Origin: Gemmiger sp.
GTDB lineage: Bacteria > Bacillota > Clostridia > Oscillospirales > Ruminococcaceae
Assembly: GCA_028710135.1 (NCBI GenBank)
Contig: JAQUSS010000007.1
Coordinates: 1-43,453, forward strand
Reading direction: 5' to 3'
Length of the DNA stretch: 43,453 nt
Of this stretch, positions 10,543 through 19,050 are shown piece after piece (position 1 is the first letter of the stretch; every line of letters begins with the position of its first letter). A program made the position numbers and the translations under genes. The notes beneath the pieces were generated by a model. It was not told where the DNA came from and did not search any database. It worked only from the letters and a program-made list of their open reading frames with translations.

Positions 10543-11991
10543 CTATTCCGCCTGCCCGCCCGCACCGCCATCGGGGGGTGCCCATGTAAACATACGTTCC
10601 AGCGCACTTCGCAGCTTTTCGCCCACCCCGTTTGCCAAATCGTTTAGTTTTTCCAGCCGCTCTTCTATCGTGGCCGTTTCCGGGGTGGCATCCTCCGGGG
10701 TGGCGCTCTCAGCGGTAGCATCCTCTGGGGTAGAACTCCCCGCGGTAGCACTTTCGGGCGTAGCAGGCACCGGCACGGCGCTTTCTGGGGTGGCACTCTC
10801 GGGCGTAGCACTTTCAGGCGTGGCAGGCACCGGCGCGGCACTTTCGGGGGTTGCACTCTCCGGCGTGGCATCCTCCGGCGTGGCGCTCTCGGGGGTGGCT
10901 TCACTCCAAAGCAGCGGCTCGGCCTGTTCCTCCTGCAACCCCTCGGCAGGTATTTCGGGGGCGGCTTCGGGCGCAGCTTCCGGGGTGGCCGCTTCGGGCG
11001 CAGCCTCCGGCGTGGCCGCTTCGGGCGTGGCGCTCTCGGGCGTGGCCGCTTCCGGCGTGGCGCTCTCGGGCGTGGCGGGGGCTGTCACCGTCAGGCGGCA
11101 GGCGGCGGTTTTATCCCCTGCCGTGGCGGTAATGTCCACCGCCCCGGCGGCCAGGGCCGTCACATAGCCATCCTGCGTCACCGTGGCAACGGCAGGGTCG
11201 CTGCTCTGCCATTGCAGGGCGGGGGTGTTTTCCCCCATCGGCTGCGGCTGCACGGCTGCCGCCAGCACCATCCGCTCCCCCTGTTCAAGGGCAAGCGCGG
11301 CGCGGCTCAACACAACACTTTGCACGGCATCCCCCACAGAAACGGCGCAGGTCGCCGTGAGGGAGGTGCCCTCCACGCTGGCAACCACCGCAGTTTCGCC
11401 GGTGGCAACGCCCCGCACCACGCCCGAAGGATCCACCACGGCAATGGTTTCATCCAGCGAGGTATAGCGCACGGCCCCGCCCGCCTCGGTGCCGTAACCG
11501 GCATAGCCAATTTGGGTATTCAGCGGCTGGGCCTGCCCCACCGGCAGGGCCAGCGTTTGGTCAATCGATAGGCTATCGGGCAAAGCGACCACCGTAACGG
11601 CAACCTCGTAGGTGGCATCCAGCGCATCGCACCGCACCCGCACCACGGCCATGCCGGGGGCCTTGGCGGTAAGTAAGCCACTCTCGTCCACCCGCACCAC
11701 GCCGGGGGCGCTGCTTGTAAAATCGAGCGAGAAGTTTTCGCTCCCCTCCAGCGCCGCCAGGGCGGCGGTTACGGTGGCGGCATCCGGCTCCTGCCCCTGG
11801 TAGCGGGCGGCCTGCAACAGCGGGTAGGTTTGGCCGGGGGCTAGGTCAATGTTGCTGGGCAGGCTAAAATCTGCCGCGCTGCACCCGCACAGCCCCATCA
11901 CCAGGGCCGCCAGCAGGCCCAGCAGCCCCAGCTTCCACATTTTGCTGTTTTTAAAAATTCCGGCTTCACCATGTTTATAACCATGCTTCAT
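10543..11991 (-). CDS. Big2 (bacterial Ig-like) domain lipoprotein with ATPE(S/A/D) repeat stalk
   Basis: MKHGYKHGEAGIFKNSKMWKLGLLGLLAALVMGLCGCSAAD lipobox; repeated SSAPGVVRVDESGLLTAKAPGMAVVRV, TSLDETIAVVDPSGVVRGVATGETAVVAS, SSDPAVATVTQDGYVTALAAGAVDITATAG Big2 modules; C-terminal ATPES tandem repeats. GGAGGG RBS upstream of ATG 11991. Confidence 0.8.
   Translation of the reverse strand: MKHGYKHGEAGIFKNSKMWKLGLLGLLAALVMGLCGCSAADFSLPSNIDLAPGQTYPLLQAARYQGQEPDAATVTAALAALEGSENFSLDFTSSAPGVVRVDESGLLTAKAPGMAVVRVRCDALDATYEVAVTVVALPDSLSIDQTLALPVGQAQPLNTQIGYAGYGTEAGGAVRYTSLDETIAVVDPSGVVRGVATGETAVVASVEGTSLTATCAVSVGDAVQSVVLSRAALALEQGERMVLAAAVQPQPMGENTPALQWQSSDPAVATVTQDGYVTALAAGAVDITATAGDKTAACRLTVTAPATPESATPEAATPESATPEAATPEAAPEAATPEAAPEAAPEIPAEGLQEEQAEPLLWSEATPESATPEDATPESATPESAAPVPATPESATPESATPESAVPVPATPESATAGSSTPEDATAESATPEDATPETATIEERLEKLNDLANGVGEKLRSALERMFTWAPPDGGAGGQAE
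10670..11085 (-). repeat. 15-nt tandem coding repeats (ATPES/ATPEA/ATPED units)
   Basis: Degenerate 15-nt units repeated in frame in the lipoprotein gene, interrupted by a short non-repeat segment (GLQEEQAEPLLWSE). Confidence 0.85.
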
Positions 11992-12339
11992 TTGAACGGC
12001 CCTCCGCTTTACCACTACGCTTTCACGTTTTTTATCGTCTTCCACCATCCTGCCCCGGCAATTGGGTACAGATATTTATACTATACCGCCCCGCCGGGCA
12101 ATTTGCAAGCCAAAACCTGCGGTATTTCGCCTTTTCCGGCGGGTTTTGCCCTCATTTCCCTCGCAAATCCTGCGGCAGCGCCGCGCAATTTCCGCCCGGC
12201 GGCCCGGCGTTTGCCCCGCACCGGAATTGTGCGGTATTGCCCCAAACATTCACACAAATATTGCCGCTTTTGTGGTATACTGTATTTGTATATACCAATA
12301 CGCAAAATCTACGCAAAAACAACACCAAGGGGGCACAAC

Positions 12340-14647: not shown

Positions 14648-16081
14648 ATGAACAATGAACATCTTTTGCAAACCCTGCTTGAACATTACACCGCGCAAAA
14701 GCTGTACCCCATGCATATGCCGGGCCACAAACGCCGCCTGGCCCCCGCGCCCGGCCTGCCCTACCGGTGGGATGTAACCGAGCTGCCCGGCACCGATAAC
14801 CTGCACGATGCCCACGATATTTTGGAGCAGGCCATGCAGCGCACCGCCAACCTTTGGGGCGCGCGGCGCAGCTGGTACCTTGTAAACGGCAGCACCTGCG
14901 GCATTTTGGCCGGGGTTCGGGCCTTGGCCCCCCTGGGCAGCGAGGTAATTGCGGCCCGCAACTGCCACAAATCGGTTTACCACGCCATTGAGCTGGGTGC
15001 GCTTACGGCCCATTGGGTCACCCCGCCCATCGATAGCAGCTTTGGCGTTTACGGCAGTGTGCCCCCGCAGGATATTGCCGCCGCGCTGGAAGCCCACCCG
15101 GCGGCCCGCTGCGTAATTTTAACCAGCCCCACCTACGAGGGGGTCATCAGCGATATTGCGATGATTGCCCGCATCTGCCACGACCATAACGTGCCCCTGC
15201 TGGTGGATGAAGCCCACGGTGCCCACCTGGGCCTGTACCCCGGGTGGGAGGGTGGCGCGCTGGCGGGCGGGGCCGATGTGGTGGTGCACAGCCCCCACAA
15301 AACCCTGCCCAGCATGACCCAAACCGCCCTTTTGCACTGGAATGGCGATTTGGCCGACCCTGACGAGCTGGCCCGCCAGCTGGAGGTGTTTGAAACCAGC
15401 TCCCCCTCCTACCCGCTGCTGGCCTCCCTGGATGGCTGCACCGGGCTGCTGCAGGGCCGTGGGCGGGAGCTGTTTGCCGCCTGGGCCGAATGGCTGAACC
15501 GCTTTGACCGCCGCGCTTTTGATTTGCGCCACCTGCGGGTGCTTTGCTATGGCGGCGATAACTGCCACAACCACCCCAAATTTTACCGGCACGACCGTAG
15601 CAAGCTGCTAATCAGCACCCGCCAAACCGATTGGACGGCCCCCCAGCTTGCCACCGCCCTGCGGGAGCAGTGCAAGTTTGAAACCGAAATGACCTGTGGG
15701 GAAAATGTTCTTGCCATGTCCAGCCCCTGCGATGGCGCGGCGCTTGACCATTTTGCCTCGGCCCTGCTGGCGCTTGACCGCACGGTGGGCATCCGCCCGG
15801 CGGCCGATATTGTACCCCTGCCCCAGCCCGGCCCGGCCCGCTGCACCATTGCCGAGGCCCTGCACCAGCGCGATAAATTTAAGGTGGTGCCCCTGAACGA
15901 GGCCGCGGGCTGCGTTGCCGCCGAGTATGTGTGGGCCTACCCACCCGGCGTGCCGCTGGTTGCCCCGGGCGAGCAGATACCCTTAGCATTTACCCGCGCC
16001 TGCACTGACCTTGGCTATATTGGCACCACCCTGCACCACACCGGCACCAAAACCCCCAATACCATGCGGGTACTGGGTTGA
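14648..16081 (+). CDS. Orn/Lys/Arg decarboxylase family (PLP-dependent, fold type I)
   Basis: YPMHMPGHKRR..DVTELPGTDNLHDAHDILEQAMQRTANLWGARRSWYLVNGSTCGILA..LVDEAHGAHLG..VVHSPHKTLPSMTQTALLH (PLP lysine). Confidence 0.92.
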   Translation: MNNEHLLQTLLEHYTAQKLYPMHMPGHKRRLAPAPGLPYRWDVTELPGTDNLHDAHDILEQAMQRTANLWGARRSWYLVNGSTCGILAGVRALAPLGSEVIAARNCHKSVYHAIELGALTAHWVTPPIDSSFGVYGSVPPQDIAAALEAHPAARCVILTSPTYEGVISDIAMIARICHDHNVPLLVDEAHGAHLGLYPGWEGGALAGGADVVVHSPHKTLPSMTQTALLHWNGDLADPDELARQLEVFETSSPSYPLLASLDGCTGLLQGRGRELFAAWAEWLNRFDRRAFDLRHLRVLCYGGDNCHNHPKFYRHDRSKLLISTRQTDWTAPQLATALREQCKFETEMTCGENVLAMSSPCDGAALDHFASALLALDRTVGIRPAADIVPLPQPGPARCTIAEALHQRDKFKVVPLNEAAGCVAAEYVWAYPPGVPLVAPGEQIPLAFTRACTDLGYIGTTLHHTGTKTPNTMRVLG

Positions 16082-16107
16082 CAAACCCCCGCCCCAGCGT
16101 GTACAAT
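16078..16107 (+). promoter_or_regulatory. SigA-type promoter for the SCIFF operon
   Basis: TTGACA (16078-16083), 18 bp, TACAAT (16102-16107). The -35 box overlaps the TGA stop of the decarboxylase gene (16079-16081). Confidence 0.7.
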
Positions 16108-16143
16108 ATAAGTACTTTTTAATGATGAAGGAGTGACTGTCCT

Positions 16144-16293
16144 ATGAAGCATATCCAAACTTTGAACACCCGCGATATGGCCGAAAGCGCCAAGAGCGGC
16201 GGCTGTGGCGAGTGCCAGACCTCTTGCCAGAGCGCCTGCAAAACGAGCTGTGGCATTGCCAACCAGCCCTGCGAGAAAACCAACAAGGACTGA
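16144..16293 (+). CDS. SCIFF (six cysteines in forty-five) ranthipeptide precursor
   Basis: Direct translation: MKHIQTLNTRDMAESAKSGGCGECQTSCQSACKTSCGIANQPCEKTNKD, 49 aa, six Cys, with the SCIFF core GGCGECQTSCQSACKTSC. Too short for the supplied ORF track. AAGGAG RBS; maturase gene downstream. Confidence 0.95.
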   Translation: MKHIQTLNTRDMAESAKSGGCGECQTSCQSACKTSCGIANQPCEKTNKD

Positions 16294-16308
16294 TTTTGCG
16301 GCATTTAC

Positions 16309-16341
16309 GCCGGAATGCCCTGTGCATTCCGGCTATTTTTT
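16309..16341 (+). terminator. Intrinsic terminator/attenuator between SCIFF precursor and maturase
   Basis: GCCGGAATGC-CCTGT-GCATTCCGGC followed by TATTTTTTT. Confidence 0.8.
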
Positions 16342-16451
16342 TGGCCTGTGGGCCGGGGGCAGCGCCCCTGCCCGGCCCCACGCCGCCCCACCCGCGCCAC
16401 CAGGCCGGCCGCAAACCGGCCCCTACATACCATAAAGGAGCCAAAATTTTC

Positions 16452-17918
16452 ATGATCCATCAATACCAACTCGGCGGCTACCATATTGTGCTGGACGTTT
16501 ACAGCGGCAGTGTACACGCCGTGGATGCCCTTGCCTACGATGCCATTGCCCTGGTGGATGCCGGCACCCCGCGCGCCGCTATTGCCCCGGCGCTGCTAAA
16601 AAAATACGCCGCCCACCCCGAGGTTACCCCCGCCGATATTGAAGATTGCCTTGCCGATATCGACGAGCTGACCGCCCAGGGCAAGCTGTTTACCGCCGAT
16701 ACCTACGCCGATAAAGCGTTCGATTTTAAAAACCGCAGCACGGTGGTCAAGGCGCTTTGCCTGCACGTTGCCCACACCTGCAACCTAAACTGCGAATATT
16801 GCTTTGCCGCCCAGGGCAAGTTCCACGGCGAAGCGGGGCTGATGTCGTTTGAAACCGGCAAGCGGGCACTGGATTTTTTGGTTGAAAATTCCGGCACGCG
16901 CCGCAATTTGGAGGTTGATTTTTTTGGCGGCGAACCGCTGATGAACTTTCAGGTATGCAAAGACTTAGTTGCCTATGCCCGCAGCATTGAGGGCGAAAAA
17001 GGCAAAAACTTCCGCTTCACCCTCACCACCAACGGCATCGGCATCACCGATGAAGTCATCGATTGGGCAAACAAAGAGTGCTACAACGTTGTTTTAAGCC
17101 TGGATGGCCGCAAGGAAGTGAACGACCGCTTCCGCAAGGACCTGGCGGGCAACGGCAGCTACGACCGCATTGTTCCCAAATTTCAAAAGTTTGTGGCCGC
17201 CCGCGGGGGCAAAAACTACTATATGCGGGGCACCTTCACCCACCACAACACCGATTTTACCAACGATTTGTTCCATATGGCCGATGACCTTGGCTTTACC
17301 GAGCTTTCGATGGAGCCGGTTGTCAGCAAGCCCGGCGCGCCCGAGGCACTGACCGAGGAAGACCTGCCCCGCCTGTTTGACCAGTACGAGCTGCTGGCAA
17401 ACGATATGCTCCGCCGCGAAAAGGCGGGCGCACCCATCACCTTCTACCATTATATGGTCGATTTGGCGCACGGGCCCTGCATCTACAAGCGCATCTCGGG
17501 CTGTGGCTCGGGCACCGAGTATATGGCCGTTACCCCCTGGGGCGATTTGTACCCCTGCCACCAGTTTGTGGGGGGTGCCGCCTACAAGCTGGGCGATATC
17601 TGGCAGGGGGTAACCAACCCCGCCCTGCGGGATGAATTTAAGCTTTGTAACGTTTATGCCCGGCCCGATTGTAAAGATTGCTGGGCACGGCTCTACTGCT
17701 CGGGCGGGTGCGCGGCCAACGCCCTGCACGCCACCGGCGATATCCACGGCATCTACGAGTACGGCTGCAAGGTGTTCCGCAAACGGATGGAATGCGCCTT
17801 GATGATGAAGGTTGCCGAGAGCCTGGACCCAGCCCTTGCCGCCCGCCGCCCCGCGCCCGATGCCACCACCCCCGCCGCCGAGGAAAACGGCTGCGACAGC
17901 TGCATGGAGGATTGTTGA
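16452..17918 (+). CDS. SCIFF maturase, radical SAM/SPASM (thioether-forming, CcpM-type)
   Basis: LCLHVAHTCNLNCEYCFAAQGKFHGE (CxxxCxxC), VDFFGGEPLMNF, CGSGTEYMAVTPWGDLYPCHQFVG, CKDCWARLYCSGGCAANA (SPASM); directly follows the SCIFF precursor. RBS AAAGGAG. Confidence 0.95.
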   Translation: MIHQYQLGGYHIVLDVYSGSVHAVDALAYDAIALVDAGTPRAAIAPALLKKYAAHPEVTPADIEDCLADIDELTAQGKLFTADTYADKAFDFKNRSTVVKALCLHVAHTCNLNCEYCFAAQGKFHGEAGLMSFETGKRALDFLVENSGTRRNLEVDFFGGEPLMNFQVCKDLVAYARSIEGEKGKNFRFTLTTNGIGITDEVIDWANKECYNVVLSLDGRKEVNDRFRKDLAGNGSYDRIVPKFQKFVAARGGKNYYMRGTFTHHNTDFTNDLFHMADDLGFTELSMEPVVSKPGAPEALTEEDLPRLFDQYELLANDMLRREKAGAPITFYHYMVDLAHGPCIYKRISGCGSGTEYMAVTPWGDLYPCHQFVGGAAYKLGDIWQGVTNPALRDEFKLCNVYARPDCKDCWARLYCSGGCAANALHATGDIHGIYEYGCKVFRKRMECALMMKVAESLDPALAARRPAPDATTPAAEENGCDSCMEDC

Positions 17919-17919
17919 G

Positions 17920-19050
17920 ATGGAATACCGCGTAAACCGCCACGGCGGTGAAAAAACCAGCCTGTTGGGCCTGGGCATGATGCGCCTGCCCCTGCGCGAC
18001 CCTGCCGACCCTACCAGCATTGACGAAGAAAAAGCACAGCAGATTGTAGATTACGCCTACGCGCATGGGGTCAACTACTTCGACACCGCCTACCCCTACC
18101 ATGGCCGTATGTCCGAAAAATTTTGCGGCCGCGCCCTGGCCCGCTACCCCCGGCAAAGCTACCACCTGGCCAGCAAGCTGCCGGGCTGGCTGGTAAACGG
18201 TGCCGAGGATGTGCCCCGCCTGTTTGAGGAGCAGCTGCAAAACTGCCAAACCCCCTATTTTGATTTTTACCTCTGCCATTCGGTGCACGAGGAAAACTGG
18301 CCCCGCTACCAGGCCGCCAACGCCTACGCCCAGCTGGACGAGCGCCGCCAAAAGGGGCAAATCCACAACCTGGGCTTCTCCTTCCACGGCGGGGTGCCGC
18401 TGCTGAAGGAGGTTTTGGCCGCCGGCAAGTGGGATTTTGTTCAGCTTCAGCTCAATTATTTTGATTGGGATTACCAGGATGCCCGCACCAAATACGAGCT
18501 TTGCGCCGCCGCCGGGTTGCAGGTGGTGGTGATGGAGCCGGTGCGGGGCGGCGGCCTTGCCACCCTGTGCGATAGCGCCGCAGCCCTGCTGCAACAGGCT
18601 GCGCCGGATGCCAGCCTTGCCCGCTGGGCCATCCGCTGGGCCGCCGGGTTGCCGGGGGTGCTGTGCGTGTTATCGGGGATGTCTACCCTGGAGCAGGTGG
18701 TGGATAACACCGCCGCTATGGCCCCCTTCATCCCTCTTACCACCGCCGAGCAGGCCACCCTGGCCGATGCCTTGGCCGCCATCAAGGCGCAAAAGCTGGT
18801 GCCCTGCACCACCTGCAAGTACTGTATGCCCTGCCCCGCCGGGGTAAACATCCCGGGGATGCTGCGCATTTATAACGAGTACCGCCTGCACGGCGAAATT
18901 CCCGCCCGCCTGCGCGAAAGCTACAACGAAGCGCCCGAACCCACCCGCGCCGCGCATTGCGTGGCCTGCGGCAAGTGCAAGGCCCAGTGCCCCCAGCAGA
19001 TTGATATCCCCGCCCACATGGCCACCATCGCCGCCCTGGCAAAGGAATAA
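17920..19050 (+). CDS. Aldo/keto reductase with C-terminal 4Fe-4S ferredoxin-like domain
   Basis: RHGGEKTSLLGLGMMRLPL..GVNYFDTAYPYHGRMSE..YFDFYLCHSVHEENW; C-terminal CTTCKYCMPCPAGVNIP and CVACGKCKAQCPQQIDIP. Starts 1 nt after the maturase stop. Confidence 0.9.
   Translation: MEYRVNRHGGEKTSLLGLGMMRLPLRDPADPTSIDEEKAQQIVDYAYAHGVNYFDTAYPYHGRMSEKFCGRALARYPRQSYHLASKLPGWLVNGAEDVPRLFEEQLQNCQTPYFDFYLCHSVHEENWPRYQAANAYAQLDERRQKGQIHNLGFSFHGGVPLLKEVLAAGKWDFVQLQLNYFDWDYQDARTKYELCAAAGLQVVVMEPVRGGGLATLCDSAAALLQQAAPDASLARWAIRWAAGLPGVLCVLSGMSTLEQVVDNTAAMAPFIPLTTAEQATLADALAAIKAQKLVPCTTCKYCMPCPAGVNIPGMLRIYNEYRLHGEIPARLRESYNEAPEPTRAAHCVACGKCKAQCPQQIDIPAHMATIAALAKE

What the first reader, a model, noticed from the sequence alone, without database searches (positions are those of the whole stretch)
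16078..19050. Complete SCIFF ranthipeptide locus, with a precursor missed by the ORF track
A 49-aa peptide with six Cys (MKHIQTLNTRDMAESAKSGGCGECQTSCQSACKTSCGIANQPCEKTNKD) lies between a good SigA promoter and a radical SAM/SPASM maturase. Established: SCIFF peptides are near-universal in Clostridia and receive Cys-to-alpha/gamma-carbon thioethers, but their biological role is unresolved. Seen here: the precursor has its own promoter, terminator and a downstream redox partner gene.
Basis: partly seen in the sequence, partly recalled or inferred. Interest (0 to 1): 0.75.

Follow-up and report, generated by a model that had tools for sequence, protein, structure and literature searches.

The report
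SCIFF peptide locus beside a decarboxylase

Summary
The 49-aa peptide at 16144-16293 matches the SCIFF models (TIGR03973 84.7 bits, cut-off 50; PF13165 83.5, cut-off 27), and 16452-17918 is its maturase (TIGR03974 743 bits, cut-off 425; closest solved structure CteB, 5WGG). The promoter (TTGACA-18-TACAAT, 16078-16107) is conserved in relatives. A terminator lies between precursor and maturase.

As a SCIFF locus it is ordinary: 128 of 147 sampled genomes of the class have one. The claimed redox partner fails: that aldo/keto reductase lies near scfAB in 3 of 77 relatives, and in none of 48 loci of the class survey.

Comparison gave three further results. (1) This peptide belongs to a clade with Gly at position 37, where CteA has Thr. 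(2) The recurrent neighbour of Gly37 loci is an Orn/Lys/Arg-decarboxylase-family gene: 14/17 against 0/31 Thr37 loci, which sit by yajC/secDF. Two lineages of it are linked. (3) The window's family holds both types on separate branches (AU p ~1e-11), so the locus was probably acquired horizontally. The decarboxylase's role is inferred only.

The parts
14648..16081 (+). Orn/Lys/Arg-decarboxylase-family PLP enzyme (short form, 477 aa); the recurrent neighbour of Gly37 SCIFF loci
   Evidence: PF01276 145 bits, PF03711; closest solved structure 2x3l, PLP-Lys motif SPHKTL intact; within 1.5 kb in 53/77 Gly37 loci and 0/46 Thr37 loci; only PF01276 gene found in this genome
16078..16107 (+). scfA promoter TTGACA-18-TACAAT, its -35 box overlapping the stop codon of the decarboxylase gene
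   Evidence: near-identical site at about the same distance from scfA in 21/23 Gemmiger-lineage loci against 0.2 expected
16144..16293 (+). scfA: SCIFF precursor, 49 aa, six Cys, Gly at position 37; ribosome-binding site AAGGAGTGA upstream
   Evidence: TIGR03973 84.7 bits (cut-off 50), PF13165 83.5 bits (cut-off 27); 157 relatives collected
16309..16333 (+). intrinsic terminator between scfA and scfB (10-bp stem followed by a T tract)
   Evidence: the arrangement recurs in relatives above expectation
16452..17918 (+). scfB: radical SAM/SPASM SCIFF maturase, 488 aa; N-terminal peptide-binding (RRE) region, CX3CX2C at CNLNCEYC, SPASM cysteines, Cys-rich tail GCDSCMEDC
   Evidence: TIGR03974 743 bits (cut-off 425); CteB 5wgg E 2.5e-156, radical SAM and SPASM cysteines aligned; tail
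17920..19050 (+). aldo/keto reductase with C-terminal 4Fe-4S domain, starting 1 nt after scfB stops; a local passenger, not a conserved partner
   Evidence: PF00248 127 bits, PF13187 34 bits; near scfAB in 3/77 Gly37 loci, 0/48 in the class survey

Best explanation
This is a bona fide SCIFF ranthipeptide locus of the Gly37 clade in a Gemmiger-type gut bacterium. The conserved promoter transcribes scfA; the hairpin after scfA ends most transcripts, so precursor is made in excess, and read-through (no second promoter-like site was found) supplies scfB (inferred from layout). The precursor's N-terminal leader binds the N-terminal recognition domain of ScfB; the radical SAM cluster cleaves SAM, and the enzyme, with two auxiliary clusters, joins Cys32 to the gamma carbon of Thr34, a loss of 2 Da (inferred by homology to CteA/CteB). 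Position 37 is Gly here, so the alternative Cys32-Thr37 bond cannot form. The gene that belongs with this branch is the upstream decarboxylase-family PLP enzyme: decarboxylase plus scfA plus scfB recurs as a small module in varied surroundings and has probably spread horizontally, replacing the ancestral yajC-linked Thr37 locus in this lineage. Most likely the two parts act in one physiological response, for example polyamine or amino-acid homeostasis tied to a peptide signal (weakest, inferred step). The adjacent reductase is incidental.
For: Family models and closest structure. Promoter and terminator conserved above shuffled controls. 156 alignable cores: Thr34 invariant in 156/156, position 37 Gly 97, Thr 58, Ser 1. 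Gly37 maturases form one clade (support 92, 96). Decarboxylase within 1.5 kb in 14/17 Gly37 against 0/31 Thr37 loci of the class survey, Fisher p 1.4e-9, in two arrangements (about 140 nt before scfA, or about 20 nt after scfB), from two separate decarboxylase lineages, with almost no shared gene beyond it (43 groups). Family f1 split over both branches, AU p 1.2e-11. The classic slot queA-tgt-yajC in the window's own genome lacks scfAB.
Against: No chemistry or expression was tested. The whole core is nearly invariant, so invariance of Thr34 is not specific evidence that it is the acceptor. Adjacency is not function: about a third of Gly37 loci (24/77) lack the decarboxylase nearby, including several Gemmiger species, and loci within a clade are not independent events, so the Fisher p overstates the case. 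Differential loss of ancient paralogues could mimic transfer, though no sampled genome carries both peptide types. Many of the genomes are MAGs and the window's own is 88% complete.
Confidence: 0.72

Rival explanations
1. Purely ordinary SCIFF locus: the decarboxylase is a neighbour by shared descent only and Gly37 is neutral drift, so nothing distinguishes this locus functionally from the classic yajC-linked one.
For: Gly37 loci form one clade, so much of the adjacency is inherited once per lineage; some Gly37 genomes keep the decarboxylase unlinked (e.g. G037, G044); the decarboxylase has another home before tmk/gmk/darA/holB in Thr37 genomes.
Against: Two separate decarboxylase lineages became linked, in different orders relative to scfAB, while other neighbours turned over; class survey 14/17 against 0/31.
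Confidence: 0.4
2. The aldo/keto reductase with 4Fe-4S domain is a dedicated redox partner that feeds electrons to the maturase.
For: It starts 1 nt after scfB stops and carries a 4Fe-4S domain.
Against: Near scfAB in only 3 of 77 Gly37 loci (one of them on the opposite strand) and in 0 of 48 class-survey loci.
Confidence: 0.05
3. The product carries a different cross-link in the Gly37 clade, for example Cys32 to the alpha carbon of Gly37, or more than one thioether.
For: Position 37 differs systematically between clades that also differ in maturase lineage; in-vitro work on the Thr37 type reported Cys32-Thr37 (PMC8172795); Ser27, Ser30 and Ser35 are invariant too.
Against: Thr34, the acceptor seen in heterologous expression, is invariant.
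Confidence: 0.2

Closest known systems
Thermocellin / CteA-CteB (Clostridium thermocellum), SCIFF ranthipeptide
   Same: Same precursor family, same maturase family (5wgg, E 2.5e-156, radical SAM and SPASM cysteines aligned), same Cys32 and Thr34
   Different: Gly instead of Thr at position 37; Cys-rich C-terminal tail on the maturase; decarboxylase upstream, where Thr37-type loci usually have yajC (context of the CteA locus itself not examined)
Tte1186a / Tte1186 (Caldanaerobacter), SCIFF
   Same: Same families; one thioether reported (PMC8326336)
   Different: The reported Cys32-Thr37 bond cannot exist here because position 37 is Gly
Classic SCIFF neighbourhood ruvB-queA-tgt-yajC-scfA-scfB-secD/F
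   Same: scfA before scfB on one strand, often with a terminator between them
   Different: None of these neighbours is within four genes in any of 97 Gly37 loci
Freyrasin (PapA/PapB), Paenibacillus polymyxa
   Same: Ranthipeptide with a related radical SAM/SPASM maturase
   Different: PapB model scores 252 bits, below its cut-off of 340, here; Cys-X3-Asp motifs absent; six beta-carbon links in freyrasin (PMC8172795)

Membership tests
SCIFF precursor (TIGR03973 / PF13165) | Score above the curated cut-off over the full model | tested here: met
   84.7 against 50 over positions 1-43 of 43; 83.5 against 27 over 1-44 of 44
SCIFF precursor (TIGR03973 / PF13165) | Six cysteines in about 45 residues | tested here: met
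   Cys 21, 24, 28, 32, 36, 43
SCIFF precursor (TIGR03973 / PF13165) | Adjacent dedicated maturase | tested here: met
   scfB starts 158 nt after the scfA stop codon; a same-strand downstream maturase in 147 of 157 loci
SCIFF maturase ScfB (TIGR03974) | Equivalog score above cut-off and above sibling models | tested here: met
   743 against 425; next best NF040492 521.6 against its 855
SCIFF maturase ScfB (TIGR03974) | CX3CX2C radical SAM motif and SPASM auxiliary-cluster cysteines | tested here: met
   CNLNCEYC; SPASM cysteines aligned with CteB 5wgg
Ranthipeptide | Non-alpha thioether formed by the radical SAM enzyme | not testable with these tools
   Needs co-expression, MS and NMR; Thr34 and Cys32 are present, Thr37 is absent
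Orn/Lys/Arg decarboxylase family (OKR_DC_1) | PF01276 match with PLP-binding Lys motif | tested here: met
   145.3 bits against 27; SPHKTL aligned with 2x3l; motif in 56 of 57 adjacent homologues
Orn/Lys/Arg decarboxylase family (OKR_DC_1) | Which amino acid, if any, it decarboxylates | not testable with these tools
   All NCBIfam decarboxylase models are far below their cut-offs
Dedicated redox partner of ScfB | Conserved linkage of the aldo/keto reductase with scfAB | tested here: not met
   3/77 Gly37 loci, 0/48 in the class survey

The most novel reading that the evidence does not exclude
The Gly37 SCIFF loci are a distinct, horizontally spreading branch in which a decarboxylase-family PLP enzyme is a functional third component: it changes the peptide, or makes or removes the small molecule (for instance a polyamine) that the modified peptide responds to. 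That would give the near-universal but functionally obscure SCIFF system its first metabolic handle.
Probability: 0.25. Interest if true: 0.75.

Novelty: new member of a known kind. Interest (0 to 1): 0.42.

Why it matters
SCIFF peptides are in most Clostridia, yet what they do is poorly known. A natural clade lacking Thr37 is a ready test of the two conflicting published cross-link sites. A decarboxylase gene linked to it from two separate lineages is a concrete, testable lead to function, and because that gene lies elsewhere in classic genomes it would be overlooked there. Signs of horizontal replacement also qualify the usual picture of SCIFF as a purely vertical core locus.

Tried and rejected
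(a) Aldo/keto reductase as conserved partner: rejected, 3/77 and 0/48. (b) RNA element in the intergenic region: no Rfam match in the window. (c) A repeat between scfA and scfB (16404-16426 looked repeat-like by eye): no repeat found, and its exact core occurs once in the held genome. (d) A first gene caller based on the longest ORF gave spurious antisense genes and lost 32 loci; replaced by a codon-usage caller, and decarboxylase and reductase adjacency recounted by profile search. (e) A first decarboxylase tree mixed in wrong ORFs for some loci, seen as very long branches; rebuilt. (f) A first AU test called Gemmiger rows non-family and so overstated the conflict; repeated with only genomes of known family code. 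(g) Adjacency explained by the tmk/holB operon being next to scfAB: not supported, no tmk, gmk, darA or holB was recognised among the groups printed beyond the decarboxylase in Gly37 loci (not all 43 groups were annotated), while they follow it in Thr37 genomes. (h) Literature search for SCIFF with YajC: no paper held; SCIFF with decarboxylase: five papers, none evidently about this link from title and abstract; an attempt to open what I took to be the original SCIFF paper found it not held, so prior description of either link cannot be excluded.
Full report
What is there. It passes both curated SCIFF models with wide margins (84.7 bits against 50; 83.5 against 27), and the gene starting 158 nt after its stop codon, 16452-17918, passes the SCIFF-maturase equivalog (743 against 425) and none of the sibling maturase models shown. 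Its closest solved structure is CteB, 5WGG/5WHY, at E 2.5e-156, with the CX3CX2C motif and the SPASM cysteines aligned. The genome holds one SCIFF gene and one maturase of this family; a second hit at 31% identity is another radical SAM protein. The nearest relatives are Gemmiger.

Control elements. A near-consensus promoter (16078-16107) overlaps the stop codon of the upstream gene. Taken over the 3.4-kb region such sites are not rarer than chance, so conservation is the evidence: 87 of 97 Gly37 loci have a site of at least 10/12 in the 170 nt before scfA, against 3.1 expected in shuffles, and in the Gemmiger lineage 21 of 23 against 0.2, with the -35 box 61-68 nt before the gene. The hairpin with T tract at 16309-16333 lies between scfA and scfB; such terminators occur between the two genes in 38/97 and 24/48 loci of the two types (2.2 and 0.4 expected). 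I read this as a device to make more precursor than enzyme; that is inference.

Distribution. 128 of 147 genomes sampled from the class have the peptide and 126 the maturase above cut-off; none of the 14 control genomes has either above the cut-off. In the window's own family 50 of 61 have the peptide. So the locus as such is ordinary.

The claimed redox partner. A profile of the aldo/keto reductase finds it near scfAB only here, in one other Gemmiger MAG (L035) and, on the opposite strand, in L067: 3 of 77 Gly37 loci with adequate flanks, none of 46 Thr37 loci, and none of 48 in the class survey. It is a passenger.

Two SCIFF types. Of 157 peptides, 156 have an alignable core. Thr34 is in all 156; position 37 is Gly in 97 (including the window), Thr in 58 and Ser in one. 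Two published assignments conflict: Cys32-Thr37 from in-vitro work, and Cys32-Thr34 through the gamma carbon from co-expression in E. coli (reviews PMC8326336 and PMC8172795). In the Gly37 clade the first is impossible. This does not prove the second, because almost the whole core is invariant and Cys-to-Gly37 is conceivable.

The neighbourhood follows the type. Thr37 loci sit in ruvB-queA-tgt-yajC-scfA-scfB-secD surroundings; YajC is within four genes in 39 of 58, and none of these genes is near any of 97 Gly37 loci. Gly37 loci instead have an Orn/Lys/Arg-decarboxylase-family gene within 1.5 kb: 53 of 77 overall, and 14 of 17 in the class survey, which was not drawn by similarity to the window, against 0 of 31 Thr37 loci there (Fisher p 1.4e-9). 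It lies mostly either about 140 nt before scfA or about 20 nt after scfB, on the same strand in all but one case. Genes beyond it share almost nothing (43 groups). A tree of the enzyme separates two linked lineages: the window's (27 before scfA, 7 after scfB) and another of 23, all after scfB, whose nearest kin are genes of family-f1 genomes with no such link. In many Thr37 genomes sampled, the enzyme precedes thymidylate kinase, guanylate kinase, the cyclic-di-AMP receptor or holB. It keeps the PLP-lysine motif in 56 of 57 linked copies; the closest structure is 2x3l. Its substrate is unknown. In the window's genome it is the only PF01276 gene found.

Horizontal replacement. Gly37 maturases form one clade (92 and 96). 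The window's family f1 is split: 12 rows sit with order-mates on the Thr37 side, while six rows (window, G037, G023, G006, G018, G044) lie inside the Gly37 clade among many other families; holding f1 together is rejected, AU p 1.2e-11. The window's genome still has queA-tgt-yajC-DUF3792 with no scfAB there. Transfer with loss of the old copy is the simplest reading; ancient duplication with differential loss is possible, though no sampled genome has both types.

Co-occurrence. Within f1, the decarboxylase family is found in 20 of 21 SCIFF-positive genomes that I compared and 3 of 10 SCIFF-negative ones (p 3e-4). One of the ten (G048) has a maturase cut at a contig edge, some hits are more distant decarboxylases, and shared descent is not controlled, so this is only suggestive.

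Mechanism. Shown: genes, motifs, family membership, conserved promoter, hairpin, clade and neighbourhood. Inferred by homology: leader binding by the N-terminal domain, SAM cleavage, one gamma-thioether from Cys32 to Thr34 (CteB has an open site on auxiliary cluster I to which a substrate Cys binds; PMC6231123). Inferred weakly: that the decarboxylase acts in the same response as the peptide. Disruption of the SCIFF genes in C. beijerinckii lowered sporulation genes and raised agr (PMC8102284), so a signalling role is the best existing lead.

Verdict.

Noticed in passing
L090:7081-7923, L119:6804-7088, L129:7885-8169: Two SCIFF units fused head to tail in one reading frame, in one small branch of the Gly37 clade: a natural two-unit precursor.
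   Followed up: partly
L193 (G049, a 0.7-Mb genome): SCIFF peptide with Cys32 replaced by Ala, the only loss of a core Cys among 156, although an intact-looking maturase (594 bits) lies elsewhere in that genome.
   Followed up: partly
G142 (f36), L173: SCIFF gene present in a 99%-complete genome with no maturase above cut-off.
   Followed up: partly
L133, L151, L158, L164, L166, L168, L169, L171, L173, L193: Precursor without a maturase in the fetched stretch; in most of these genomes the maturase is elsewhere, so the pair is not always linked.
   Followed up: partly
window 17870-17915: Maturase ends in a Cys-rich tail GCDSCMEDC; tails with three or four Cys are common in the Gemmiger lineage and rare elsewhere.
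   Followed up: partly
L256:4000-7361: queA-tgt-yajC-DUF3792 in the window's own genome, the classic SCIFF slot, without scfAB.
   Followed up: yes
window 10543-12048 (-): Long predicted surface-type protein with a C-terminal run of TPESA/TPEAA repeats.
   Followed up: no
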